A stretch of DNA of 51,159 bases from NCBI GenBank assembly GCA_016182655.1, contig JACPGB010000021.1, positions 1-51,159 of the forward strand, written 5' to 3'. The position numbers were made by a program, and so were the translations under genes. Shown in pieces: positions 3,778 through 15,986 of this stretch (positions within the stretch are counted from its first letter, which is position 1; each line of letters opens with the position of its first letter). Source of the DNA: Deltaproteobacteria bacterium (lineage in GTDB: Bacteria; Desulfobacterota; GWC2-55-46). The notes beneath the pieces are model-generated. The model was not told where the DNA came from and ran no database searches. It saw nothing but the letters and a program-made list of their open reading frames with translations.

Positions 3778-4269
3778 TTGGCAGAGTACAATCTTGGCTT
3801 CAGCCAAAAACTTATAGAAGCGGCCCGCATGGTAGCCGAAGATGATTTGGATTCTGAGGATGCAGCACGGACCGTCCTTTACCTCAGTCTTCTTTCCTGT
3901 GAAATCACTCTCAAATCATTATTGGAGCATGCTGGTTTTTCAGTAAAGGAAATAAGCAAATGTTCTCATGATTTCAATAAGTTATTATTATGTATCGGTA
4001 AATGCCGGATAAAAAAAGAAATTGGCAATGGTGTATATAGATGGGTGCCCGCGACAAGAATTCGTTCAATACCTGTTGACCCTGTGTATGGCAATGCGAC
4101 TATAGGCACCCTTCTTGAGGCAGGAGACTGTGGTGCATCGGTGTACCCAAATCAAATCAGATACGGAGATAAGGTTCGGCATTTTCCACCAAAGCTAATG
4201 CTGAGCGCTGCAGAGAACCTACTTCATCATGCAAAAGGATATTGGATTACTATCCGAATTTGTCAATAA
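3778..4269 (+). CDS. HEPN-like protein of unknown function
   Basis: A 163-residue soluble protein. The N-terminal ~60 residues are helical and resemble HEPN domains: a helix with AARTVLYLSLLSCEITLKSLLEHAG, then SHDFNKLL, recalling the R/D/H-containing second half seen in HEPN proteins. The canonical R-x4-6-H RNase motif is not clear, so catalysis cannot be claimed. The start is TTG at 3778, eight bases after AAGGAGG; no ATG lies nearby. Codon use and base composition are AT-richer than in the neighbours, and palindrome copies lie on both sides (3732-3762 and 4281-4308), both pointing to acquisition. No partner antitoxin-like gene is adjacent. The HEPN call is fold-level inference; no specific function is proposed. 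Confidence 0.6.
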   Translation: MAEYNLGFSQKLIEAARMVAEDDLDSEDAARTVLYLSLLSCEITLKSLLEHAGFSVKEISKCSHDFNKLLLCIGKCRIKKEIGNGVYRWVPATRIRSIPVDPVYGNATIGTLLEAGDCGASVYPNQIRYGDKVRHFPPKLMLSAAENLLHHAKGYWITIRICQ

Positions 4270-4375: not shown

Positions 4376-5860
4376 TTATTTGTCCTTCCTCCTCGCCCCC
4401 CGCAACCACAATAACTCCAATATAAACACAACCACCACGGCCCCTGCCGCCCATGCATAAGGCGATCCACCTTCTCCTCCTCCGAGCACAAGACTGTTCC
4501 ACCCGGTCATGGTATGCCTTCCGCCCTTCTCTCCGTTCGAGCCGTCCCAGAGCGCAAAGGCTACTGGCACGAACCTTTGCGCGTCCTCTTCCCTCCACTC
4601 GCGCTTCAAAGGCCCTTTGAAGACCACTTGCCGGGTCCCTTTCTCGTACATGCCCCTCGCGCTCACCCCGTTAGATACGTCCTGCACGATTGAGGCCCCC
4701 TTTGCCTTTATCGCTCTCACCGTCCCGTCGTTCTGCCAAAACCAGATGTCTACCGGCTTTGAGGCTGACCCCATCCCGAAGTACGGTTTTTCTCCCATCG
4801 ACGACGGAAACTCCACCGCCGCCCCGTCCTTGAACACCTCCCCGTCCGACAAATCCACGGCGGATGCATCCCCGGGGACGGAATCCGTCGGGTCGTCCCA
4901 CTCGATGAGGAACGCGATCTCATCGTCGTTGAAGAGCGTCTTGACCGAAACGGAAGCCAGCGTCGGCGTAAAGAGCCGCTCCCCCTCTATTATCTGCGGC
5001 ACGAGATAGAAGCTCTCGAAGGCGGCCTTGTCCCACTCCGCGCCGGGTGAGTCCGGCAAAGGCCCATCGACCTTCACAGCCTTTATCACCGCCCCCTCGC
5101 CCGGCTTCTTGTAAGGCGCATCAAGTGAGGCAACGTAGTTCGCTACATCCCATCTCTCATCATCGGAAAGCGTCTTTTTGGACTGCGGGTCGGCGAAGGA
5201 CGGCATCTGCGTGCCGGGTATCCCGACCGTCAAGCGCGCATAGATATCAACGGGCGCGCTCCCTGCCCTGAAGGTCCACGGCTTTGTAAGGTCCCTCGGC
5301 CAGGTCCGCGCCCCCAAATCATCCTTGAGCTTCTTTCTACCGTCACCGCGCCCCTCGTCGCCGTGGCACTCCGAGCAGACGTCCCCGAATATCTTTTTCC
5401 CGCGCGCGATAGATTCCTTCGAAGGCGCAACCTTCACTTTTAAATCTATCGGCGGCTTCTCAGGCGCTTCGAGTCCCGATAAACCCTTAAGATACGCGAT
5501 AACGTCCTTCGTATCGTTATCCCCCAATACATCCGCCCACCCAGGCATCGATGTGCCGTTGAGGCCATCCCATCCGGGGACCGTGTTGTGCGCTGGCCAA
5601 CCCTTTATCATCTTTATAAAGTCTTCGTCAGACGGCGACAACTCGTCAAACGGCGTCGTCTTCCACTTGTATATGCCCAAGGTGAAGTCCCTCGGGGGCG
5701 GGTTGAGGTATTGGGCCGCAGGCCCGTCTCCCGCGCCGTCCTTGCCGTGGCACTGCCGACAGTATTTCTCATAGACGGGCTTTCCTTGCTCAACGTCGCC
5801 GGAGGCAAAGGCTGTCGCTGAAAAGAGAAGGATAGATATAAATATAAAAACCGTTCTCAT
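4376..5860 (-). CDS. Di-heme cytochrome c with C-terminal EB_dh-like domain and membrane anchor
   Basis: A 494-residue periplasmic electron carrier. A signal peptide (residues 1-20, ending AFAS) is followed by two cytochrome c domains with CRQCH at 34-38 and CSECH at 162-166. Candidate distal Met ligands lie in MPGW (~105) and MPSF (~216). Residues ~265-455 resemble the heme-binding domain of ethylbenzene-dehydrogenase gamma subunits (NDDEIAFLIEWDDPT, then IWFWQNDG), often found attached to multiheme or bd-associated cytochromes. One transmembrane helix near 468-486 is followed by a basic cytoplasmic tail (RGARRKDK). The ATG at 5860 has GGAGAG three bases upstream. It is the last gene of the bd-like oxidase operon, but a 219-bp repeat-filled gap separates it from the preceding gene, so it may have its own transcript. 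Confidence 0.85.
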   Translation of the reverse strand: MRTVFIFISILLFSATAFASGDVEQGKPVYEKYCRQCHGKDGAGDGPAAQYLNPPPRDFTLGIYKWKTTPFDELSPSDEDFIKMIKGWPAHNTVPGWDGLNGTSMPGWADVLGDNDTKDVIAYLKGLSGLEAPEKPPIDLKVKVAPSKESIARGKKIFGDVCSECHGDEGRGDGRKKLKDDLGARTWPRDLTKPWTFRAGSAPVDIYARLTVGIPGTQMPSFADPQSKKTLSDDERWDVANYVASLDAPYKKPGEGAVIKAVKVDGPLPDSPGAEWDKAAFESFYLVPQIIEGERLFTPTLASVSVKTLFNDDEIAFLIEWDDPTDSVPGDASAVDLSDGEVFKDGAAVEFPSSMGEKPYFGMGSASKPVDIWFWQNDGTVRAIKAKGASIVQDVSNGVSARGMYEKGTRQVVFKGPLKREWREEDAQRFVPVAFALWDGSNGEKGGRHTMTGWNSLVLGGGEGGSPYAWAAGAVVVVFILELLWLRGARRKDK

Positions 5861-6079: not shown

Positions 6080-6847
6080 TTACTTCTCACGCGCCCACTC
6101 CCTCGGTCTGTTCCCCGTAAAGTCATAGAGGAAGAGTATCACCTTCCAGACCTCTTCCTCTGTAAGCTTGCCCTCCCACGCGGGCATCGACGAGTTCGCG
6201 GGCCCGCCTTCGGCAGGCAGGCCGGGACCGCCCTTCACGACCCTCCAGAATACATATGACTCCGACAACTGCGCTATCGTGTCCTTGCCCTTGAACGGTA
6301 GCGGCCTCGGAGAAAGCCCGTGCGCGTAATGCCCCCTGCCGTCGAGCTTGTCCCCGTGGCAGAAAAAACAGTTCTTGAAGTATATTTCAGCGCCCTCGGC
6401 CACATACGATCTAAAAAGCTCCGCATCCTCCTTCTCCGTTCTCCGAAGCGGGTTTTCAAGTGTGGCGATATCGTACGGCCTCCCGTACGCGCTCATCCTT
6501 GAAGGCGGCGCGGGGTGTATGGAGCGGAGCTCCGCCGGGGGCTCGCCCCCCCTGGACGCAAGCCCATACGCGATGTACCCGGCAATAAGCGGCGTAACAG
6601 CGAATACGATGTTCCTTACAAAAGCCTTCTTCGGGTCTTCGACAAGCGCCCTTATGGGGCGAAAGAGCTCCTCGGTCGATTCGTCGGTCGAGGTCATGAC
6701 AAGGAGGACGGTCGCCACGATCAAGACCATGTACATGAATATCAGGGACTCGGGGATGGGTTTTCCAAGGAAGATCCCCGGCGTCTTAAGTAGCCCGTAT
6801 ATGACCCCAACGATGATTATAAACTGCGCGAGCTTCGGGAGCCTCAT
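6080..6847 (-). CDS. Membrane-anchored mono-heme cytochrome c
   Basis: A 255-residue protein with three predicted N-terminal transmembrane segments (about 7-22, 33-51 and 78-97) and a periplasmic cytochrome c domain. Heme c attaches at CFFCH (160-164) and SSMPAW near 222 supplies the probable Met ligand. It likely passes electrons in the membrane plane to the CydA-like subunit encoded two genes upstream. The ATG overlaps the previous stop as ATGA (6844-6847), so the two cytochromes are translationally coupled. The membrane domain is not one I can name. Confidence 0.85.
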   Translation of the reverse strand: MRLPKLAQFIIIVGVIYGLLKTPGIFLGKPIPESLIFMYMVLIVATVLLVMTSTDESTEELFRPIRALVEDPKKAFVRNIVFAVTPLIAGYIAYGLASRGGEPPAELRSIHPAPPSRMSAYGRPYDIATLENPLRRTEKEDAELFRSYVAEGAEIYFKNCFFCHGDKLDGRGHYAHGLSPRPLPFKGKDTIAQLSESYVFWRVVKGGPGLPAEGGPANSSMPAWEGKLTEEEVWKVILFLYDFTGNRPREWAREK

Positions 6848-7398
6848 CTCGCCCCCTCCGAGTCCGTGGTCGCCTCAATTGCCCCGCTTACATCAATCCC
6901 CCCTGCCTCCCCCGTTACCGTCACATCGACACCGGATAATCTCTGTAGATACGCGATGACGGAATCGACCTCCTGAGCGCTCAATCCTATCGCCCCGGTC
7001 GTCACGTCAGGCATGGGCGAGGTCAACTCGTCCCCAGCCATTCCATACCCCGGCACTACATACGCCGACGGGCTCGCAAGCGACTCGCGGATGTACTCTT
7101 CGGCTGTCTTTGCCGAGCCGTGATAGTCTATTGAAGCGATGCGCGTATTGGCGGCTTCCATTATATTATCAAGGAGCGGGGCCCTGCCGGCGGCGTTGTG
7201 ACAGAGCGCGCACGCGCCCTTGCCCTTGAATACCTTCTCTCCGAGCGAGATGAGCCCCTCGACACCGACTGCGTGAACGGCCTCAAGAGACGGCGGCTCC
7301 TCCGGCTTCATCGGCGGCACATAGAGAGAAGAAAATAGCGTGTACGCCGCGATGATCGCGACAGAGAAAGCGGCTACCTTTAAAAACCTCTTATTCAC
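6844..7398 (-). CDS. Membrane-anchored mono-heme cytochrome c
   Basis: A 184-residue protein with one N-terminal hydrophobic helix (8-27) that may be an uncleaved anchor, then a class-I-like cytochrome c domain with CALCH at 63-67. MPDV or GYGM near 125-140 are candidate Met ligands. The family's C-terminal helix (SAQEVDSVIAYLQRLSG) is present. The start is GTG at 7398, overlapping the TAA of the oxidase gene by eight bases. Its place directly after the oxidase subunit makes it the first candidate for the oxidase's electron donor. Confidence 0.85.
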   Translation of the reverse strand: MNKRFLKVAAFSVAIIAAYTLFSSLYVPPMKPEEPPSLEAVHAVGVEGLISLGEKVFKGKGACALCHNAAGRAPLLDNIMEAANTRIASIDYHGSAKTAEEYIRESLASPSAYVVPGYGMAGDELTSPMPDVTTGAIGLSAQEVDSVIAYLQRLSGVDVTVTGEAGGIDVSGAIEATTDSEGAR

Positions 7399-9199
7399 CG
7401 AAGTCCGCGCCCTTCCGTCCGCTCAGCCAAAATATGAAGACCACGAGCGCCATGAAGATTATCGTCCCTACGGATACCACATTCGCGGCATACCCTATGG
7501 TCGGGGTGAAGGCGTCGGCTGACGCGTCCCGCATCACCGAAAACACATGCCAGTGCTGGCGTATCGCGGCCCTGACATAACCCATAAGCCCCATGAGCCA
7601 GGTGAACGAAACGGTTATAAGGAATATCGCGTACTGGCTCCTCTCGGGCATCCGCCCCCATCTATAAACCCCGGCCTCTTTGGCCCCCCTGTAGATAAAG
7701 AACTCGATAACAAGGCAGGCGATGATGGCAAATAAGGTCGTCGCCACCTGCGGAACGGACGACGCCACCTTATATACCGTATTCGCAAAGTACCCGTAAT
7801 AGACACCGAGAAAAACAATATTGAGGATGGCGGCGGAGAATATCGCCGCCTGCGCCGCCTTGCCGTAGGGGGCCCATGAGACGACCGCCACCCTGTTCGC
7901 GCGCCTGTAAAAGAGGAAGCTCAAAAAAGTAAAGAGGAGCATGATGTTGACGGCCGTGTTCTTCGCGGGCATGAGGCCAAGCGGCCCGAGGTACGGATGG
8001 TACTGCCCGCCGAGCGCGCTCGCCTCCCAGGGTTTCAAGATGAGCGTGTGCGGCGTGAACCAGACGATGAACGAGACGGCGACCATGAAGGCTATGTACT
8101 TTATGTATGGAGTGTAGCGTCTGCCGCCTTCGCTCCTTGAAAGCCCGCACCAGAGGTAGTAGTTCGCGGCGAGGAACAACGCCCCTATGATGACCGCCTG
8201 TATGATAAAGAGCCACGCGAAGACCCCGCCCATGAGCGTTATCCCCATCTGCTGGCTGTAGGCGTAGATCTCCGCGGTCAGCCAGTACCCGGCGAACGGG
8301 AGCGGCAGGAGCGCGCCTATGGAGACGAGGTTCGCCGTGTACCCCATCCAGTCGTAGTGGGCCTTTTCTTCCTCCGTAGTAGAGCTTAAAAACCTGTACG
8401 CCGCGTACGAGCCGACGATAGACCCGCCGTACGCGATGTTAGCGATGAACCTGTGGAGGTTCATCGGGTTCCAGAGGTTATTGTGCACCGCCGCCCATAT
8501 GTCCCCCTGGAACGCGCCCTTGATATCCACGCCAGCCGGTGACATCATGAAGGTCACCCAAGCGTTCGCGACGAACATTATCGCGGTCCCGGCGAGGTTC
8601 AGCGCGATGCCGATGCAAAGGTGCGCAATCTTTCCCGCCCCGGTCTTTAGCCTCTTCCAGAGGCGGAAATACAGGATAAGCGCCGCGTTCTCCAGAATGA
8701 AAAACAGGAAGTACAGAAAGACCGTCGGCTTGAATATCGAGAGGAGATACTTCATCAAGTGCGGGTAGAATGCGAATAGGACGACCGTGAAGAGGACTCC
8801 TGTGACGGCGGTGAGCGTATACGCCGTCATCGAGACCCTGATGAACTCGTATGCCATCCTGTCGTAGCGCTCGTCCTTCTTCACTATCCCTATCGCCTCG
8901 ATGATCACGACGAATATCGGGACCGCAAGGACGAACGCCGCGAACCATAGGTGCATCTGCGCCGCCATCCATACCGCGACCCTCGGGCGGACGACGGATG
9001 ACGCCGGGTAATCGTCTTTCGTAAGCCTCGGAGCGGAGCTCTCTGCCCCGGCAGGGGCCGCCTCTCCGGAGATAACAGATGAGCCCGCCCCCTCGCCTGC
9101 AAAGGCCGAAGGGAGAAAGGTCTGAGAACATGCGAGGATGACGAGGAGGAGAGCGAAAACCCTCAGGAGCCCCGGGATGTGCTTGCGCATTGTCTTCAC
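7391..9199 (-). CDS. CydA-like (cytochrome bd superfamily) oxidase subunit without the quinol motif
   Basis: A 602-residue polytopic membrane protein. H83 in AAQMHLWF matches the first-helix heme-ligand His of CydA, H249 in NLHRFIANIAYGG matches the second heme-b His, E170 in FFILENAALILYF matches the conserved proton-channel Glu (E107 in E. coli), and VANAW matches VANGW. The GRQPW quinol-loop signature is absent, and the residue equivalent to the other channel Glu (E99) is Leu. The extended N-terminus (1-34) looks like a signal peptide, unusual for CydA. No cydB follows; cytochromes c do. This fits bd-superfamily members described from Nitrospirota and relatives (OR-N/OR-C groups), thought to take electrons from c-type hemes. 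The start is GTG at 9199, five bases after AAGGGG; ATG 9190 is an alternative. Confidence 0.85.
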   Translation of the reverse strand: MKTMRKHIPGLLRVFALLLVILACSQTFLPSAFAGEGAGSSVISGEAAPAGAESSAPRLTKDDYPASSVVRPRVAVWMAAQMHLWFAAFVLAVPIFVVIIEAIGIVKKDERYDRMAYEFIRVSMTAYTLTAVTGVLFTVVLFAFYPHLMKYLLSIFKPTVFLYFLFFILENAALILYFRLWKRLKTGAGKIAHLCIGIALNLAGTAIMFVANAWVTFMMSPAGVDIKGAFQGDIWAAVHNNLWNPMNLHRFIANIAYGGSIVGSYAAYRFLSSTTEEEKAHYDWMGYTANLVSIGALLPLPFAGYWLTAEIYAYSQQMGITLMGGVFAWLFIIQAVIIGALFLAANYYLWCGLSRSEGGRRYTPYIKYIAFMVAVSFIVWFTPHTLILKPWEASALGGQYHPYLGPLGLMPAKNTAVNIMLLFTFLSFLFYRRANRVAVVSWAPYGKAAQAAIFSAAILNIVFLGVYYGYFANTVYKVASSVPQVATTLFAIIACLVIEFFIYRGAKEAGVYRWGRMPERSQYAIFLITVSFTWLMGLMGYVRAAIRQHWHVFSVMRDASADAFTPTIGYAANVVSVGTIIFMALVVFIFWLSGRKGADFGE

Positions 9200-9201
9200 T
9201 G

Positions 9202-9315
9202 CTACCCCTTGAATATGAACGAGAGCCCCTGAAGGCTAAGGAACGCGATATCGAGCGCGAAAAACGCGAGCGCTGAGGCGGCAAAGGTTATTACGAACGC
9301 AATGATCTTCTTCAT
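9202..9315 (-). CDS. 37-residue single-helix membrane peptide, candidate small oxidase subunit
   Basis: A small gene just upstream of the CydA-like gene: its TAG ends two bases before the GTG start of that gene and supplies the AAGGGG ribosome site. The peptide begins MKKIIAFVITFAASALAF and continues FALDIAFLSLQGLSFIFKG, forming one or two hydrophobic stretches with Lys only at the ends. CydX and CydS, the small subunits of classical bd oxidases, also have about 30-40 residues and one helix, and CydX has 37 in E. coli. Sequence similarity to CydX is not evident, so the role is inferred from size, topology and operon position. The ATG at 9315 is the first start after the promoter at 9377-9406; GAGGTTGTC lies just upstream. 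Confidence 0.75.
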   Translation of the reverse strand: MKKIIAFVITFAASALAFFALDIAFLSLQGLSFIFKG

Positions 9316-9356
9316 GACAACCTCTTCTTTTGACTTAAAAAGGCACTTGCATCTTC

Positions 9357-9459: not shown

Positions 9460-10002
9460 ATGAAAACAGTCCAAAAACTTCCAACATACAAATTGGCGCG
9501 AAAGACAAAGAAGAGGGCTCTCGTCCTCGGGGTCGGCAACATACTCCTCAAGGACGACGGGCTCGGCGTAAGGACGGCCGAGTTCTTCTCTCATTCATAC
9601 TCATTCGGCAGCGATGTCTCCTGTCTCGACGGCGGAACGGCAGGCGCGGGCCTCCTCCCGCTCTTCAGCGAATTCAGCCACATAATCATCATCGACGCCC
9701 TCTCGTCCGACTCTCCACCCGGCACCATCTATAAATTCAGCGGGGAGGACCTGAAAAAAAAAGGTGCGCGCCTCAAGACCACCGCTCACTCCATAGGCGT
9801 AAAGGACTTGCTCGACCTTGCGGCGTTCGAGGGTTCTCATCCTGTAGTCTCGATAATAGGCATCGTACCCTCGGACATATCCCCCGGCCTCGATATCTCG
9901 GACCCGGTGCGGGAAAAGCTCCCCGAGGCGGCAGGACAAATATCAGATACGCTCAAACGGTTCGGTTTCAAGACGGCAAAGAGGAAGAGAAAAGATGCAT
10001 GA
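9460..10002 (+). CDS. Hydrogenase maturation endopeptidase (HyaD/HycI family)
   Basis: A nickel-dependent protease that removes the C-terminal extension of a [NiFe]-hydrogenase large subunit after the metal centre is inserted. The family nucleotide-like motif LGVGNILLKDDGLGV is at 23-37. The three nickel-sensing ligands of the family correspond to D33, D79 in IIIIDALSS and H110 in TTAHSIG. At 180 residues it is a little long because of basic tails at both ends. The ATG at 9460 has no well-spaced ribosome site; an in-frame TTG at 9493 would give the more typical N-terminus (MARKTKKRALVLGVGN) but also lacks one. Its stop overlaps hypA by eight bases, and it opens the hyp operon. Confidence 0.9.
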   Translation: MKTVQKLPTYKLARKTKKRALVLGVGNILLKDDGLGVRTAEFFSHSYSFGSDVSCLDGGTAGAGLLPLFSEFSHIIIIDALSSDSPPGTIYKFSGEDLKKKGARLKTTAHSIGVKDLLDLAAFEGSHPVVSIIGIVPSDISPGLDISDPVREKLPEAAGQISDTLKRFGFKTAKRKRKDA

Positions 10003-10336
10003 GATGGGAATAGCCAAAAGCCTCCTTGAGATAATCAAGAGGGAGATGAAGAAGTCGAAGGTAAAGAGGCTTAAAAAGGTCAGGGTCAAGATAGGCGAGC
10101 TGACGGCGGTGGAGCCCGAGGCCCTGCGGTTCTGCTTCGAGGCTTCCATAAAGGACACGGCCCTCGACGGCGCGAGGCTCGAGATAGAAGACGTGCCGCT
10201 GACCGGCAAGTGCCATGATTGCAGGACCAGGTTCCGCTTCCAGCACTTTGTGAGCCTCTGCCCGGTCTGCGGCGGAAAGAAGATAGAAAAACTCACCGGG
10301 ACCGAGCTCGACCTCGTATCGATCGAGGCGGTATAG
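9995..10336 (+). CDS. hypA: Hydrogenase nickel-insertion protein HypA
   Basis: HypA, with HypB, delivers Ni to the [NiFe]-hydrogenase large subunit. It has 113 residues. The N-terminal MHEMGIAKSLL contains the invariant His2 nickel ligand, and the zinc site is formed by C73/C76 (GKCHDC) and C89/C92 (LCPVC). The ATG at 9995 overlaps the end of the protease gene, indicating coupled translation. HypB follows nine bases after the stop. Confidence 0.96.
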   Translation: MHEMGIAKSLLEIIKREMKKSKVKRLKKVRVKIGELTAVEPEALRFCFEASIKDTALDGARLEIEDVPLTGKCHDCRTRFRFQHFVSLCPVCGGKKIEKLTGTELDLVSIEAV

Positions 10337-10345
10337 GATAAAAAA

Positions 10346-11026
10346 ATGCACGACATACTTATTGAAGAAAAGATACTCTCGGAGAACGACGCGATAGCAG
10401 AAGCGAACAGGCACGCCTTCAACGAAAAAGGCGTCTTCGTCATCAACATGGTTAGCTCCCCAGGAGCGGGCAAGACGACCCTTATAGAGAAGATGACGCC
10501 TGTCCTGCTCGATAAGCTCGGCAGGTTCGCCGTTATCGAGGGCGACCTCGAAGGCGACCTCGACGCCGTGCGCATCGCAAAATACGGCGTACCGGTCAAG
10601 CAGATAACGACCGGAAAGGCCTGCCACCTGGATGCCCATAACATCGCCCATGTGCTTTCATGGACGCTCGATCAGGACGCAAGGCTACTTATAATTGAAA
10701 ATGTCGGCAACATGGTCTGCCCGGCCGAGTACGACCTTGGCGAGGACATGATGGTCACTATCTTGAGCGCCGCCGAGGGGGACGACAAGCCCCTTAAGTA
10801 TCCCGCGATATTCAACGCGTCATCCGCCCTCATCATAAGCAAGACCGACCTCGCGCCCCATACGGATTTTAATATCTCCACAGCGAGGACGAACGCCCTT
10901 TCCATAAACCCGGAGCTTCAAATCTTCGAGACATCATGCAGGAACGGAGAAGGCATAAAGGAATGGTGCAAATACCTTTGCTCAAGAGTGCTCGCTCTGC
11001 GTGGTCCGGTTAAAACGAACCGCTAA
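10346..11026 (+). CDS. hypB: Hydrogenase nickel-insertion GTPase HypB
   Basis: HypB is a SIMIBI-class GTPase that powers nickel transfer with HypA. The 226 residues contain the P-loop SSPGAGKTTL (from 37), the EGDLEGDLDAVRI switch segment with the family's acidic residues, and ENVGNMVCPAEYDLG, where the Cys belongs to the metal-binding GTPase-domain site. The N-terminus lacks both the His-rich tract and the CxxCGC motif present in some HypB proteins, so this is the short form without nickel-storage capacity. Part of the operon with hypA. Confidence 0.96.
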   Translation: MHDILIEEKILSENDAIAEANRHAFNEKGVFVINMVSSPGAGKTTLIEKMTPVLLDKLGRFAVIEGDLEGDLDAVRIAKYGVPVKQITTGKACHLDAHNIAHVLSWTLDQDARLLIIENVGNMVCPAEYDLGEDMMVTILSAAEGDDKPLKYPAIFNASSALIISKTDLAPHTDFNISTARTNALSINPELQIFETSCRNGEGIKEWCKYLCSRVLALRGPVKTNR

Positions 11027-11040
11027 GGGTTTGTTTTTTA

Positions 11041-11079
11041 CCTCCCCTCCCTCGACGGGAGGGGATTGAGGGGAGGGTG
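11041..11079. repeat. GA-rich intergenic repeat between hypB and hypF
   Basis: A full copy of the CTCCCTCGACGGGAGGGG repeat that ends in GGGAGGGTG. It fills most of the 95-bp gap inside the hyp operon and creates the misleading GTG start of the longer hypF reading frame at 11077. Confidence 0.85.
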
Positions 11080-11121
11080 AAAAATAACCCTTACCATCCA
11101 CTTACCGGACATTTACTATTT

Positions 11122-13440
11122 ATGAACAAGGCCCGCATACAGATAACCGGCATAGTACAGGGCGTAGGCTTCAGGCCCTTTGTATACAACCTTGCCGCAA
11201 CCCACGGCCTCAAGGGCTACTGCCTTAATGACTCCGAGGGTGTGGTCATCGAGGCCGAGGGCGCGAGCCTCGACGAGTTCATCCGGGACTTGAGACTCAA
11301 GGCCCCGCCGCTCTCTAAAATAGAAACGATAACCGTCACCGATTCGAGTGAGCGCGGCTTCAGCGGCTTCACCATAAGGGAGAGTGTGGCGGTCACCGGC
11401 AAATCCGTCCTCGTCTCCCCTGACATTTCCATCTGCGGCGACTGTTTAAGAGAATTATTCGACCCAATGGACAGGCGTCACTTATATCCGTTCATAAACT
11501 GCACCAACTGCGGGCCGAGGTACTCGATAGTTAAGGACATCCCCTACGACCGGCCGCGCACCACGATGGCGCGCTTCACCCTCTGCCCGGAATGCGACAA
11601 GGAGTACCACGATCCCTCGAACAGGCGCTTCCACGCCCAACCCAACGCGTGCGCGAAATGCGGCCCGAAGGTATGGCTCGCTAACAGGGACGGGTCCAAG
11701 ACAGACGCTGGCGTGAACTTCAACGCCATAAAAGAGGCCCAGCGATTATTAAAGGAAGGGTATATCCTCGCCATAAAGGGGCTCGGCGGTTTCCACCTCG
11801 CCTGTGACGCCTCAAACGACGACGCGGCAAAGAGGCTCCGCGAAAAGAAACGCAGGTCGTTTATAAAGGGCGGCTCGTCGAACAAGCCCTTTGCCGTGAT
11901 GTCGCCGGATATGGAGTCCATCCAGTCTTTCGCGCTCGTCGAAGAAAAAGAGGAAGCGGCGCTCAAACACAGGACGCACCCCATAGTCCTCCTCAGAAAG
12001 TCCGCCTCAACACTTTCGCCCCATGTCGCGCCCGGCAACAACAGGTACGGCGTTATGCTCCCGTACACGCCGCTCCACTTTTTACTGTTCCATGGGGCTG
12101 GTTTCAAGGCCCTTGTCATGACGAGCGGGAACCTCTCTGACGAGCCCATCGTCATATCGAATGAAGAGGCAATCGCGCGCTTATCAATGATCGCCGACTA
12201 CATGCTCCTCCACGACCGCGACATATACATGCGGGTCGACGATTCGATCGTCAGGGTCGATAACGGCGTGCAGAGGGTATTACGCCGCGCGCGCGGATTT
12301 ACGCCCGAGGCGATACCGCTCGGCGAGGAGATGGACGAGATATTCGCGGCAGGCCCGCTCCTCAAGAACACATTCACGATCACGAAGGGGCGGAACGCCA
12401 TCGTCGGCCAGCACATGGGCGACCTCGAAAATATGGATGCGCTCGAGTTCTACAAGGAGACGCTCCGGAACCTCAAAAACACATTCAAGTCCGAGCCTAT
12501 GGCCGTAGCCCTCGACATGCACCCGGATTACATGAACTCTGCGTTCGCAAGGGAGTACGCGGAATCCCACGGCATAAAGATCGACAGGATAATCCCGGTC
12601 CAGCACCACCATGCCCACATAGCAAGCGTCATGGCCGAGCACGGCCTGACGGACGAGGTAATAGGCATAGCTTTCGACGGCACCGGTTTGGGTGTTGACG
12701 GCGAGGTCTGGGGCGGCGAGTTCCTCGTCTCTTCAAGGTCGTCGTTCACCCGCTCCGCCCATCTATCTTATGTGAGGCTCCCCGGTGGGGACGCGGCTGT
12801 AAGGGAGCCGTGGAGGATGGCGCTATCTTACCTCATCGCCTCGTTCAGTGAGAACGCTGAAAAAGAGGCCCCTTTCTTCTTCGAAAGGAGGGAGGCGAAA
12901 GAGGCCGCGATAGTCAAAAGGATGGTCGAGACCGGCCTCAACTCCCCGCTCACCTCGAGCGCCGGAAGGCTCTTCGACGCGGTCGCCTCCATCATAGGCC
13001 TCAGGGACAGGATATCCTTCGAGGCCGAGGCCGCGATAGAGCTTGAGTCGATTGCAGAGATAAGAGAGGGTCTTGACCCTTACCCGTTCGGGATAAAAGA
13101 AGAAAAACCCGCGATAATCGACACGGCTCCTTTGATAAGGGCTATTGTAGAAGATGTACGGCGCGGGGTCTCAAAAGCTGAAATATCCGGCAGGTTCCAC
13201 CTGACAATGGCGGAGGCGATAGCGGCTACCGCCAAAGGCATAAGGGAAAAGATGGGGATAACAAAAGCGGCCTTGAGCGGCGGGGTCTTCCAGAACGCGA
13301 CACTTCTTTCTCTCTCGACAGAAAGGCTTGAGAAGGCTGGGTTTAAATGTTACACCAACGAGAGGGTGCCGGCGAACGACGGCGGCGTATCCCTCGGCCA
13401 GGCGGTCATCGCCTGGGAAAAGATAAAGAAAGGCAACTGA
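11122..13440 (+). CDS. hypF: Carbamoyltransferase HypF
   Basis: HypF makes the CN precursor of the [NiFe] active site: it converts carbamoyl phosphate and ATP to carbamoyl-AMP and transfers the group to the C-terminal Cys of HypE. Domains in order: acylphosphatase (VQGVGFRPFVYNLA near 10-25), two Cys4 zinc fingers (CGDC...CTNC and CPEC...CAKC, about 110-190), a YrdC-like domain (IKGLGGFHLACDA), and a Kae1-like domain with VQHHHAHIASVMAEHG, GIAFDGTGLG and LSGGVFQN. The start is taken as ATG 11122 (772 residues), because the alternative GTG at 11077 lies in an intergenic repeat and adds 15 residues foreign to the family. A good ribosome site is lacking for both. Confidence 0.95.
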   Translation: MNKARIQITGIVQGVGFRPFVYNLAATHGLKGYCLNDSEGVVIEAEGASLDEFIRDLRLKAPPLSKIETITVTDSSERGFSGFTIRESVAVTGKSVLVSPDISICGDCLRELFDPMDRRHLYPFINCTNCGPRYSIVKDIPYDRPRTTMARFTLCPECDKEYHDPSNRRFHAQPNACAKCGPKVWLANRDGSKTDAGVNFNAIKEAQRLLKEGYILAIKGLGGFHLACDASNDDAAKRLREKKRRSFIKGGSSNKPFAVMSPDMESIQSFALVEEKEEAALKHRTHPIVLLRKSASTLSPHVAPGNNRYGVMLPYTPLHFLLFHGAGFKALVMTSGNLSDEPIVISNEEAIARLSMIADYMLLHDRDIYMRVDDSIVRVDNGVQRVLRRARGFTPEAIPLGEEMDEIFAAGPLLKNTFTITKGRNAIVGQHMGDLENMDALEFYKETLRNLKNTFKSEPMAVALDMHPDYMNSAFAREYAESHGIKIDRIIPVQHHHAHIASVMAEHGLTDEVIGIAFDGTGLGVDGEVWGGEFLVSSRSSFTRSAHLSYVRLPGGDAAVREPWRMALSYLIASFSENAEKEAPFFFERREAKEAAIVKRMVETGLNSPLTSSAGRLFDAVASIIGLRDRISFEAEAAIELESIAEIREGLDPYPFGIKEEKPAIIDTAPLIRAIVEDVRRGVSKAEISGRFHLTMAEAIAATAKGIREKMGITKAALSGGVFQNATLLSLSTERLEKAGFKCYTNERVPANDGGVSLGQAVIAWEKIKKGN

Positions 13441-13441
13441 C

Positions 13442-13654
13442 ATGTGTCTCGGCATACCGGGAAAGATAATAGAGATAAAGGGCGTCAAGGCGACAATCGA
13501 TGTGGCGGGCACGAGGAAGGAAGTCAACATGAAGCTCCTGCCTGACGCGAAGACCGGCGAGTTCGTAATCGTCCACGCAGGGTTCGCCATAGAGAAGGTC
13601 GACGAGGAAAAGGCCAGAGAGGCCCTCGAATTGATAGACGGGATCATAAAATGA
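13442..13654 (+). CDS. hypC: Hydrogenase assembly chaperone HypC
   Basis: HypC carries the iron being fitted with CN and CO ligands, together with HypD, and hands it to the hydrogenase large subunit. The 70 residues begin MCLGIPGKIIEI, containing the invariant Cys2 exposed after Met removal. Its ATG comes one base after the hypF stop and its end overlaps hypD by four bases (ATGA), so HypC and HypD are coupled. Confidence 0.96.
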   Translation: MCLGIPGKIIEIKGVKATIDVAGTRKEVNMKLLPDAKTGEFVIVHAGFAIEKVDEEKAREALELIDGIIK

Positions 13655-14742
13655 AATACATAGACGAATTTCGCGGCAGACGCCGGGCCGAAGGGCTCAT
13701 AAACGAAATACGCCGCATCTCCCGCAAGGATGTCAGCATCATGGAGATATGCGGCACCCACACCCAATCGATATCCAAGTACGGGATACGGGACGCGCTC
13801 CCCAGGAACATCCGGCTCATCTCCGGGCCGGGCTGTCCGGTCTGCGTCACGTCCGCTTCCGACATAAACAGGATAATCGCCTTCAGCAGGTCGAGGAAGG
13901 ATTCGATCATAGCCACCTTCGGCGACATGATGAGGGTCCCGGGGTCGAACTCGTCCCTTCAGGACGAAAAGGCCCGGGGCGGAGACATCCGCGTAGTGTA
14001 CTCTCCGACAAATTCGCTCGACATGGCGAGGGCAAACCCGGATAAAGAGGTCGTCCTCTACGCAGTAGGCTTCGAGACTACGGCCCCGGCCGTTGCCGCG
14101 ACCATACTTGCGGCAAAGGAGGAGGGGTTAAAGAACCTCTCGGTACTCTCTCTCCACAAGCTCACGCCCCCGGCAATGAGGGCCTTGCTCGATTCCGGCG
14201 AGGTAAAAATAGACGGCTTCATAGCACCCGGCCATGTGACCGCCATCATCGGCGCGCACTCGTACGAGTTCTTATCCAAAGACTACAACTCGCCCTGCGT
14301 CGTAGCCGGGTTCGAGCCGCTCGACGCGCTCTTCGGCATCTACATGCTCGTAAAACAGCTCGAAGAGGGCAGGTGCGAGATCGAGATTCAGTACAAGCGG
14401 GTCGTCAGATGGGAGGGGAACAGGAAGGCGCAGGAGGTCTTGAGCGAGGTCTTCGAGCCGGCCGACAGCCTCTGGCGCGGGATAGGCAACATCCCGAAGA
14501 GCGGGCTTGCCATAAAAGACGCCTACGCCTCGTTTGACGCCGAGAGGAAGTTCACCATCCCGGCGGGCGAGGACGCGGAGCCGAAGGGGTGCAGGTGCGG
14601 GCTTGTGTTGAAGGGGATAGTCACGCCTGACGAGTGCCCTTTATTCGGGAACGCTTGCACGACAGAGACCCCGGTAGGCCCGTGCATGGTCTCGTCTGAA
14701 GGCACATGCGCGGCGTTCTATAAGTACAGGAAGGTGGCCTGA
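13651..14742 (+). CDS. hypD: Hydrogenase Fe-ligand assembly protein HypD
   Basis: HypD is the [4Fe-4S] scaffold on which Fe(CN)2CO is assembled with HypC. At 363 residues it is full length. The active-site CGTHTQS follows MEI near 33, the redox pair GPGCPVC is near 60, and the C-terminal cluster ligands lie in GCRCGLVLKG and in DECPLFGNAC with CMVSSEGTCAA. The ATG overlaps hypC. Downstream the operon is interrupted by about 230 bp of repeats before hypE. Confidence 0.96.
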   Translation: MKYIDEFRGRRRAEGLINEIRRISRKDVSIMEICGTHTQSISKYGIRDALPRNIRLISGPGCPVCVTSASDINRIIAFSRSRKDSIIATFGDMMRVPGSNSSLQDEKARGGDIRVVYSPTNSLDMARANPDKEVVLYAVGFETTAPAVAATILAAKEEGLKNLSVLSLHKLTPPAMRALLDSGEVKIDGFIAPGHVTAIIGAHSYEFLSKDYNSPCVVAGFEPLDALFGIYMLVKQLEEGRCEIEIQYKRVVRWEGNRKAQEVLSEVFEPADSLWRGIGNIPKSGLAIKDAYASFDAERKFTIPAGEDAEPKGCRCGLVLKGIVTPDECPLFGNACTTETPVGPCMVSSEGTCAAFYKYRKVA

Positions 14743-14752
14743 ACTCTGAATG

Positions 14753-14940
14753 GCAGGGCGCGGCTCGATTAACCACTCCCAAAACTTTAATGGAGAGCCG
14801 CCTCTCTCTTTCTCCCGCTCGGCGCGGGGCCAATGTTCTTCGGAAACTATCGAGGCAAGTGTAAGCAAGTCATCTCGATATGAACTTTGCCCGTCCGGCG
14901 AGGACCTCCCTCGACAAGAGGGATAGAGGGAAGGGTGGAC
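14753..14940. repeat. Intergenic repeats between hypD and hypE
   Basis: 14814-14905 is a copy of a ~95-bp repeat that opens CCCGCTCGGCGCGGGGCCAA and closes TTTGCCCGTCCGG-GAGGACC; other copies lie at 41495-41584 (inverted) and 50703-50796. It is joined at 14905-14939 by a GA-rich repeat. I see no gene in 14743-14972. Confidence 0.7.
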
Positions 14941-14972
14941 AAATCAAATTTCAAAAGGACAGATAAACAATA

Positions 14973-15986
14973 ATGAAAAAGAACAACAACATCCTCCTCG
15001 GGCACGGTAGCGGCGGAAAGCTCACCCGAAGGCTCATCGAAGACGTCTTCGCTACAGCCTTCAAGAACGACCTCCTCGCGCCGTTGAACGACCAGGCGAT
15101 ATTCAGCCTGCCCCCGGGCAGGCTCGCCTTCACGACGGACTCCTATGTGGTGAATCCAATCGTCTTCCCCGGCGGCGACATCGGCAAGCTCTCGGTCTGC
15201 GGCACGATAAACGACCTCGCGGTCGGCGGCGCGGAGCCCGCTTATTTAAGCGCCTCGTTCATCATAGAGGAAGGCATGGAGATGGACGAGCTCTCGGAAA
15301 TAGTCCGCTCCATGGCAGAGACCGCCGCCTCTTCGGGCGTATCAATAGTCACGGGAGACACCAAGGTCGTCGAGCGCGGCAAGGGGGATAGGGTGTTTAT
15401 TACCACAACGGGCATTGGGGTTGTAAGGGACTCAATCGACTTAAGCCCCTCGCACATACGCCACGGCGACGCGGTCATCCTCTCGGGCTCTATCGGCGAC
15501 CACGGGATAGCTATCATGACGAAGCGCGAAGGTATAGAGATGGACGTCCCGGTAGAGAGCGACTGCGCCGCCCTCCACACGCTAACGAGGGACATGCTAT
15601 CGACGGGCGGCGAGATACGCGCCATGAGGGACCCGACAAGGGGCGGGCTCGCTACGGTGCTTAATGAATTTGCGGCAAGCTCCGGAACAGCCATTGCCGT
15701 CCGCGAGGACTCCATCCCGGTAAAGGAGGCCGTCAAGGGCGCGTGCGAGATATTGGGATTCGACCCGCTTTATCTGGCGAACGAAGGCAAGCTCGTCGCG
15801 GTCGTAGCGAAGGGTTCGGCTGAAAAAATACTCTCGGCAATGAAAAAGAACCCGCTTGGCAGGGATGCGGCGATCATCGGAGAGGTCAGGGAGGCCCCGA
15901 GGGGCAAGGTGCTCCTCGAGACCTCAATAGGCAACATGAGGATAATCGACATGCTCTCAGGCGAGCAACTGCCGAGGATATGCTGA
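14973..15986 (+). CDS. hypE: Hydrogenase maturation protein HypE
   Basis: HypE dehydrates the carbamoyl group received from HypF to a thiocyanate and donates CN to the HypC-HypD iron. It is a 337-residue PurM/AIR-synthase-like ATPase: LGHGSGGKLT near 9-18, DSYVVNPIVFPGGDIG, GTINDLAVGGA, MRDPTRGGLATVLNE and, decisively, the C-terminal PRIC whose last Cys carries the carbamoyl group. AAAGGAC lies 10-16 bases before the ATG, rather far. It closes the hyp gene set. No large- or small-subunit hydrogenase gene is in the window. Confidence 0.96.
   Translation: MKKNNNILLGHGSGGKLTRRLIEDVFATAFKNDLLAPLNDQAIFSLPPGRLAFTTDSYVVNPIVFPGGDIGKLSVCGTINDLAVGGAEPAYLSASFIIEEGMEMDELSEIVRSMAETAASSGVSIVTGDTKVVERGKGDRVFITTTGIGVVRDSIDLSPSHIRHGDAVILSGSIGDHGIAIMTKREGIEMDVPVESDCAALHTLTRDMLSTGGEIRAMRDPTRGGLATVLNEFAASSGTAIAVREDSIPVKEAVKGACEILGFDPLYLANEGKLVAVVAKGSAEKILSAMKKNPLGRDAAIIGEVREAPRGKVLLETSIGNMRIIDMLSGEQLPRIC

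What the first reader, a model, noticed from the sequence alone, without database searches (positions are those of the whole stretch)
7391..9315. bd-superfamily oxidase operon with cytochromes c in place of cydB and quinol motif
The CydA-like protein keeps heme-ligand histidines (H83, H249) and one channel Glu (E170) but lacks GRQPW. It has an N-terminal signal-like extension, no cydB follows, and three c-type cytochromes are co-encoded. This suggests an oxidase or other reductase fed by heme c rather than by quinol, like the OR-N/OR-C groups described in comparative work on the bd superfamily.
Basis: partly seen in the sequence, partly recalled or inferred. Interest (0 to 1): 0.65.

Follow-up and report, generated by a model that had tools for sequence, protein, structure and literature searches.

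The report
Cytochrome-c-linked bd-like oxidase operon
A respiratory gene cluster in an uncultured bacterium encodes a relative of the cytochrome bd oxygen-using enzyme that has lost its quinol site and is paired instead with c-type cytochromes; it is one of a widespread, biochemically unstudied family that also travels with an overlooked tiny membrane protein and a predicted heme-modifying enzyme.

Summary
Confirmed. Window 7391-9199(-) encodes a CydA-fold protein (Pfam E 5e-19; model pLDDT 86, Z 35.7 to E. coli bd-II) with the heme d and b558 histidines but without the quinol-loop Lys/Glu, and without the heme b595 ligand Glu445 or Glu99. CydB is absent from the operon and from the 97.6%-complete genome. 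Three c-type cytochromes follow (1+1+2 heme motifs); the last also has an NxrC/ethylbenzene-dehydrogenase-gamma-like heme b domain. I did not find two things in print: (1) a 37-residue single-helix protein (9202-9315) just upstream, present in 72 of 80 related loci and in Nitrospira, under purifying selection; (2) near-perfect co-occurrence, often side by side, with a NirJ/AhbD-like radical-SAM protein carrying a protochlorophyllide-reductase (PCP_red) domain: 61 of 67 genomes with the oxidase-like protein against 2 of 279 without. Best reading: cytochrome-c-fed oxygen reductase, possibly with a specially modified heme. Oxygen reduction and the heme are inferred, not shown.

The parts
9202..9315 (-). 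37-aa single-helix membrane protein (MKKIIAFVITFAASALAFFALDIAFLSLQGLSFIFKG); purine-rich ribosome-binding-like stretch about 6 bases upstream (9321-9330); ends 2 bases before the GTG of the CydA-like gene
   Evidence: Homologue upstream of the gene in 72 of 80 named loci; of 12,600 ORFs one other hit above 15 bits. pN < pS in 153 of 153 pairs in the 60-95% identity band. Also upstream of Nitrospira bd-like_3. No Pfam or NCBIfam match.
7391..9199 (-). CydA-like subunit, 602 aa, signal-like N-terminus, CydA fold with extra helices in place of the Q-loop
   Evidence: PF01654 E 4.9e-19; model pLDDT 86.0, pTM 0.84; VIA-align Z 35.7, rmsd 3.6, 354 aligned to 7ose_A; tree.
6844..7398 (-). cytochrome c 1: 184 aa, one CXXCH, N-terminal hydrophobic segment; overlaps the CydA-like gene by 8 bases
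   Evidence: Cytochrom_C E 1.5e-4; one CXXCH; homologue in 55 of 60 loci with enough sequence, mostly with 2 hemes there.
6080..6847 (-). cytochrome c 2: 255 aa, one CXXCH, about 3 predicted membrane segments
   Evidence: Cytochrome_CBB3 E 8.6e-10; in 60 of 60 loci (separate, or fused to the next protein in 14 of 60).
4376..5860 (-). diheme cytochrome c with a heme-b-binding EB_dh / NxrC-like domain and a hydrophobic C-terminal segment, 494 aa
   Evidence: Cytochrom_C E 6.8e-23 and EB_dh E 2.2e-12; TIGR03477 type II DMSO reductase heme b subunit E 6.5e-29, below its cut-off; PDB 2ivf_C EBDH gamma and 7b04_C NxrC; present in 59 of 60 loci.

Best explanation
The five genes (9315 to 4376, minus strand) encode one membrane complex: a quinol-site-less CydA homologue of the OR-N kind, a single-helix small subunit, and three c-type cytochromes, the last with a heme b domain like the gamma subunit of nitrite oxidoreductase. 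Electrons enter from periplasmic donors at cytochrome c potential (soluble cytochrome c or, in some organisms, a type II molybdoenzyme), pass through the heme b domain and heme c chain to the low-spin heme of the CydA homologue (H249, probably M410) and then to a high-spin site at H83, where a substrate, most likely O2, is reduced. The 37-aa protein probably packs against the CydA homologue and stabilises its hemes, as CydX/CydS do in canonical bd. A NirJ/AhbD-like radical-SAM protein with a PCP_red domain, encoded elsewhere in this genome and often next to the operon in others, probably matures the tetrapyrrole of the active site. SHOWN: gene order, homology, fold, residue losses, the small gene and its conservation, co-occurrence. 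INFERRED: complex formation, electron direction, O2 as substrate, the role of the small protein and of the radical-SAM enzyme.
For: CydA fold and family. Conserved H19, H186, W441 and E107 equivalents, lost Q-loop K252/E257 (ligand roles from passages of PMC8324918). No CydB, single copy. Cytochromes follow in 54 of 60 loci; cytc2 and cytcEB fused into one protein in 14 of 60 named loci and in L039, which supports a physical complex. Tree next to Nitrospira bd-like_3. In L188 alpha, beta and gamma subunits of a type II molybdoenzyme, cytochromes, the CydA homologue, a Usp protein and the radical-SAM/PCP_red gene form one run on one strand. Small protein. Radical-SAM/PCP_red co-occurrence 12 of 13 against 0 of 185, and 49 of 54 against 2 of 94.
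Against: The heme b595 ligand E445 is Leu in 80 of 80 and E99 is Tyr in 80 of 80 operon proteins, so the canonical diheme O2 site is not intact and O2 reduction is not assured. The genome already has a caa3-like and a cbb3 oxidase and two more COX1-family proteins, so another oxidase is not obviously needed. Nothing biochemical exists for this family in the passages I read. The small protein was missing in 3 Nitrospinota loci with ample upstream sequence (L105, L106, L108). Co-occurrence counts are not independent of phylogeny.
Confidence: 0.6

Rival explanations
1. [quoted passage not shown]
For: Proposed in print for the Nitrospira/Nitrospina versions (passages of PMC3578206 and PMC6606698). 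E445 and E99 are lost. NxrC-like domain on the last cytochrome. Separate heme-copper oxidases in the genome.
Against: All quinol-site residues tested (K252, E257) are Gly. This genome has no nitrite oxidoreductase: the 5 PF00384 matches are NarG (over its narG cut-off), a formate-dehydrogenase-like protein, an ActB/QrcB-like protein of an alternative complex III and two pieces beside nuo genes, so an NXR anchor cannot be its role here; the alternative complex III already covers the quinone link.
Confidence: 0.2
2. The CydA homologue reduces another small molecule (for example NO, nitrite or peroxide) with cytochrome c electrons.
For: The high-spin site has lost E99 and E445 and gained invariant H551, R543, M536, M539. 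The diheme half of the last cytochrome resembles PDB 6h5l_B at E 2.2e-43 (I recall this as the partner of an anammox nitrite reductase, from memory). Relatives live in anammox and denitrifying settings.
Against: No linkage to a substrate-specific gene set was seen among clusters present in at least 4 of 80 loci; the genome has two further COX1-family proteins that look like NO reductases (one search gives no strong NCBIfam match for one and none for the other).
Confidence: 0.12
3. A divergent quinol-oxidising cytochrome bd that lost CydB and keeps another quinol site.
For: CydA fold, conserved H19, H186 and E107.
Against: Outside qOR with support 100/100, Q-loop replaced by helices, K252/E257 lost, no CydB, conserved heme c partners.
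Confidence: 0.03

Closest known systems
Nitrospira moscoviensis bd-like_3 cluster (bd-like oxidase, alt_NxrC_2, two membrane cytochromes c; PMC6606698) and its Nitrospina and anammox counterparts (PMC3578206, PMC8026999)
   Same: Same gene order CydA-like, cytc1, cytc2, cytcEB in unnamed Nitrospirota genomes that I take for Nitrospira from this gene order; both have the upstream small protein.
   Different: 48% identity; Nitrospira carries 5 or more paralogues and nitrite oxidoreductase, this genome one copy and no nitrite oxidoreductase. The 37-aa protein was not mentioned in the passages I read.
OR-N family of the cytochrome bd superfamily (Murali et al. 2021, paper not held; seen through PMC10839748, PMC12342949)
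   Same: Quinol site lost, putative cytochrome c donor, no CydB.
   Different: Only one CydA-like protein in the genome, so no separate CydA' partner; sub-group number not assigned.
Canonical cytochrome bd (E. coli CydABX, qOR)
   Same: Fold, H19, H186, W441, E107; a 37-aa single-helix small protein in the operon.
   Different: No CydB, no Q-loop, no E445 or E99, extra helices; the small protein shows no family match to CydX.
NirJ2 / AhbD radical-SAM enzymes (heme d1 and alternative heme synthesis)
   Same: Best NCBIfam matches of the linked radical-SAM protein (TIGR04055 E 1.1e-87, TIGR04545 E 2.2e-82).
   Different: Both below cut-off (500 bits); carries an extra C-terminal PCP_red domain and coexists with a second AhbD/NirJ-type gene in G000 (2 matches).

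Membership tests
OR-N (bd-like, cytochrome-c-linked CydA family) | CydA homologue outside quinol-oxidising CydA and grouped with Nitrospira bd-like proteins | tested here: met
   Tree of 55 rows: qOR apart at 100/100; window in a 37-row clade with Nitrospira bd-like_3/4 at 100/99. OR-C rows were not available.
OR-N (bd-like, cytochrome-c-linked CydA family) | Quinol-binding residues absent | tested here: met
   K252 and E257 positions are Gly in 80 of 80 operon proteins.
OR-N (bd-like, cytochrome-c-linked CydA family) | Cytochrome c as electron donor | not testable with these tools
   Only gene context: cytochromes c in 54 of 60 loci.
OR-N (bd-like, cytochrome-c-linked CydA family) | Distinct from OR-C by phylogeny | not tested
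   No OR-C reference at hand; Murali et al. not held.
OR-N (bd-like, cytochrome-c-linked CydA family) | CydAA' pair (two CydA-like subunits), as proposed for OR-N1/OR-N2 | tested here: not met
   One match in the genome with the family and with the protein itself, up to E 10. This is a feature of the OR-N1/OR-N2 complex, not of all OR-N.
Canonical quinol-oxidising cytochrome bd (qOR) | CydB partner | tested here: not met
   PF02322: 0 matches in the genome, control rings in 10 of 14.
Canonical quinol-oxidising cytochrome bd (qOR) | Q-loop with K252/E257 | tested here: not met
Canonical quinol-oxidising cytochrome bd (qOR) | Heme ligands H19, H186, M393, E445, E99 | tested here: not met
   H19 and H186 kept; E445 Leu and E99 Tyr in 80 of 80. 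M393: aligned to V485 by MAFFT, but the helix starting M410-P-A-K-N directly precedes the last two helices in the shorter relatives, so M410 is the likelier equivalent (inference).
CydX (canonical bd small subunit) | Sequence match to the CydX family | tested here: not met
   No Pfam or NCBIfam family for the window protein at E up to 1 and 0.01. Size and single helix alike; it lies upstream of the CydA-like gene, cydX downstream of cydB.
Type II DMSO reductase gamma subunit / NxrC | EB_dh heme b domain | tested here: met
   EB_dh over its Pfam cut-off; 2ivf_C and 7b04_C matches over residues 305-453 and 301-381.
Type II DMSO reductase gamma subunit / NxrC | Encoded with a type II molybdoenzyme alpha/beta pair | tested here: not met
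   None in the window operon; no type II molybdoenzyme other than NarG found by PF00384 in the genome.

The most novel reading that the evidence does not exclude
OR-N-type bd-like enzymes carry a not yet described modified heme in place of the b595/d pair, made or finished by a dedicated NirJ/AhbD-like radical-SAM enzyme with a PCP_red domain together with a Usp-PCP_red protein, and contain an overlooked single-helix subunit.
Probability: 0.33. Interest if true: 0.87.

Novelty: new member of a known kind. Interest (0 to 1): 0.6.

Why it matters
OR-N-type bd-like proteins are proposed as the terminal oxidase of Nitrospira and Nitrospina, important nitrite oxidisers, but what they do has been open since 2010-2013. 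The operon studied here shows the same module in an organism without nitrite oxidoreductase and across Alpha-, Beta-, Gamma- and Deltaproteobacteria, so it is not a nitrite-oxidation accessory. The loss of E445 and E99 together with strict co-occurrence of a tetrapyrrole-type radical-SAM enzyme gives a concrete, testable idea of what sits in the active site, and the conserved 37-aa protein names a missing subunit that any attempt to express the complex should include.

Tried and rejected
Rejected: canonical cytochrome bd; a role as anchor of nitrite oxidoreductase in this organism (no such enzyme); a CydAA' pair within this genome; CydX homology of the small protein; the small ORF as chance.

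A plasmid search with the protein gave 2 records, both canonical-type hits over 26-27% of the query.

Results against my reading: 8 of 80 loci lack the small protein (3 or 4 because the contig starts near the gene; L105, L106 and L108 have room); the second small ORF is in 49 of 80 loci but not in the window; PF08369 is also in 50 of the 185 genomes of the phylum without the operon, so the co-occurrence holds for the full-length radical-SAM/PCP_red protein, not for the PCP_red domain; 6 genomes with the oxidase-like protein lack a full-length radical-SAM/PCP_red match and 2 have it without; 3 of 49 named genomes lack PCP_red. The E-value borders used for the 2x2 tables (1e-100 and 1e-95) were set by me after seeing the gap in the tables.

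Rows dropped: one search kept 49 of 80 proteins (length 560-690, under 85% identity) for alignment A2, to which window and 4 unnamed paralogues were added; the tree used 26 of 80 named loci; one search used 54 small-protein sequences and only the 153 of 1431 pairs with 60-95% DNA identity (L048 is out of register by one residue and dropped out this way); one search covered 49 of 50 genomes asked (L064 not held).
Full report
WHAT IS THERE. The minus strand from 9315 to 4376 holds five genes in a row: a 37-aa ORF (9202-9315), a 602-aa CydA-like protein (7391-9199), and three c-type cytochromes of 184 aa (6844-7398), 255 aa (6080-6847) and 494 aa (4376-5860). The first stop lies 2 bases before the next start, and two further pairs overlap by 8 and 4 bases, as in a translationally coupled operon.

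THE CYDA-LIKE PROTEIN. PF01654 matches residues 73-305 at E 4.9e-19. The AlphaFold model (54-row alignment, pLDDT 86.0, pTM 0.84) aligns best with CydA chains: 7ose_A Z 35.7, rmsd 3.6, 354 aligned residues; the next group, a subunit of alternative complex III, is at Z 22.2. Against E. coli CydA, over 80 operon proteins: H19 is His in 77 with 3 gaps, H186 His in 80, E107 Glu in 79, W441 Trp in 80; E99 is Tyr in 80, E445 Leu in 80, K252 and E257 Gly in 80. By PMC8324918 (passages) H186/M393 bind b558, E445 binds b595, H19 binds heme d and E99 sits on its other side. So the low-spin site is kept (M410 is the likely methionine: the helix beginning M-P-A-K-N directly precedes the last two helices in the short relatives, inference), while two carboxylates of the high-spin pair are lost. 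GRQPW is degenerate, with six residues inserted between G540 and R547. Residues invariant here and absent from qOR include R543 and H551 (80 of 80).

NO QUINOL PARTNER. No CydB (PF02322) and no second CydA-like protein exist in the genome. Passages of PMC3578206 say the same of the Nitrospina bd-like protein: three helices in place of the Q-loop and no quinol-binding residues.

THE CYTOCHROMES. Of 80 named relatives (535 confirmed relatives, best 80 kept), 60 have at least 4.5 kb after the gene. Cytc1 is found in 55, cytc2 in 60, cytcEB in 59 and all three in 54; cytc2 and cytcEB are one fused protein in 14. The diheme half of cytcEB matches PDB 6h5l_B ('conserved hypothetical cytochrome protein') at E 2.2e-43; its C-terminal half matches EBDH gamma (2ivf_C) and Kuenenia NxrC (7b04_C) (the organism of 7b04 is recalled).

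PLACE IN THE FAMILY. In a 55-row tree the 4 qOR rows stand apart (100/100). The window lies in a 30-row clade of Proteobacteria, Nitrospinota and Nitrospirota operons (96/83), sister to a 7-row clade with the tandem bd-like proteins of genomes I take for Nitrospira (together 100/99). The identification rests on gene order as in PMC6606698 (passages): a bd-like gene with alt_NxrC and two cytochromes, duplicated a few genes away, and two more bd-like genes around a complex III cluster. Nitrospira bd-like proteins are published as OR-N (passages of PMC12342949 and PMC10839748). Several joins involve long branches, so the deep order is unsure. The cluster 'bd-like oxidase, diheme and triheme cytochrome c, membrane NxrC' is in print as conserved in Nitrospinae, Nitrospirae and anammox bacteria (passage of PMC8026999). 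I therefore call this a new member of a known kind.

FIRST UNREPORTED PART: A SMALL SUBUNIT. The 37-aa ORF has homologues directly upstream of the gene in all 12 relatives first examined (11 plus the window) and in 72 of 80 named loci; among 12,600 ORFs of these loci only one other scores above 15 bits (28.5, in L094, next to a copy of the second small ORF), all others 7.3 or less. Asp is at one helix position in 69 of 72 (Asn in 3), Gly of the QGL motif in 72 of 72. pN is below pS in 153 of 153 pairs of 60-95% DNA identity (median 0.26 against 0.63). It also precedes bd-like_3 in the four such Nitrospira-like loci examined (25.7 to 30.0 bits) but not bd-like_1, 2, 4 or the deeper groups. A second ORF of about 32 aa with one helix is upstream in 49 of 80 loci, not in the window. 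Neither matches Pfam or NCBIfam. Two library searches listed no paper on such a subunit; that is weak evidence of absence.

SECOND UNREPORTED PART: A TETRAPYRROLE-TYPE RADICAL-SAM PROTEIN. Clustering the neighbours of the 80 operons gave, besides the operon genes, two families in 28 loci each within 8 kb: a radical-SAM/SPASM protein with a C-terminal PCP_red domain, and a universal-stress-protein pair of domains with a PCP_red domain. The window's genome has both side by side on contig C23; the radical-SAM protein is closest to NirJ2 (E 1.1e-87) and AhbD (2.2e-82), below both cut-offs. In 198 genomes of the phylum, full-length matches at E 1e-95 or better occur in 12 of 13 genomes with the CydA-like family and in 0 of 185 others (next best E 2e-72, without the PCP_red end). 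In 148 genomes of a second phylum (Nitrospirota, by the title of L109): 49 of 54 against 2 of 94. In 49 named genomes with the operon 46 have PCP_red, whereas 1 of 14 control genomes does (a cyanobacterium). Related genomes share both by descent, so the Fisher values (2e-18 and 8e-31) overstate the case, but the pattern recurs in two phyla and the genes are often neighbours. In L188 the pair, the CydA homologue, two cytochromes and a type II molybdoenzyme (alpha, beta, gamma) form one run. Two searches and an earlier one listed no paper that joins these genes to bd-like oxidases.

HOW IT MOST LIKELY WORKS. See Best explanation. The steps that rest on sequence are the absence of a quinol site and of CydB, the retained low-spin site, the heme c chain and the heme b domain. 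Direction of electron flow, O2 as acceptor and a special heme are inference. The strongest argument for a changed active site is that two lost ligands and a dedicated tetrapyrrole enzyme coincide.

CONTEXT. The genome also has a caa3-like oxidase, a cbb3 oxidase, two further COX1-family proteins, NarG with its partners and an alternative complex III, and no nitrite oxidoreductase. The module is thus one of several respiratory ends, and its wide spread in sulfur- and iron-oxidiser lineages (for example Thiodiazotropha, Mariprofundus, Gallionellales; lifestyles recalled) fits a donor at cytochrome c potential.

Noticed in passing
window 9460-15986 (+): Hydrogenase maturation genes (HycI/HybD-type protease, HypA, HypB, HypF, HypD, HypE) lie divergently next to the operon; the same neighbours recur in 5 to 7 of the 80 named loci.
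   Followed up: partly
L030, L032-L038 and 49 of 80 named loci, upstream of the small ORF: A second short single-helix ORF (about 32 aa, GP..F....FF.WF) is common upstream of the operon but absent in the window; in L081 and a few relatives it is the start of a cytochrome c protein.
   Followed up: partly
L094, about 7.8 kb after the CydA-like gene: Copies of both small ORFs occur together a second time at the end of the locus, perhaps the start of a second operon.
   Followed up: no
L188 18-11449 (-): Type II molybdoenzyme alpha, beta, gamma, two cytochromes c, CydA-like, Usp and radical-SAM/PCP_red genes in one run: a likely direct donor for this kind of complex.
   Followed up: partly
L040, L042, L043, L189: Longer CydA-like paralogues (706-764 aa, about 13-16 predicted helices) with the same cytochromes but without the small ORF; two of them in one genome (G016) beside a standard copy.
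   Followed up: partly
window 4376-5860, first half: The diheme part matches the solved cytochrome 6h5l_B far better (E 2.2e-43) than any oxidase cytochrome.
   Followed up: no
50 of 185 phylum genomes without the operon: PCP_red domains also occur in ORFs of mostly 260-310 aa of unknown make-up in non-photosynthetic genomes.
   Followed up: no
28 of 80 named loci, about 1.6 kb before the CydA-like gene: A further diheme cytochrome c (about 220-230 aa) is a frequent upstream neighbour in Proteobacteria.
   Followed up: no
window 3778-4269 (+): 163-aa ORF downstream of the operon without a Pfam match.
   Followed up: no
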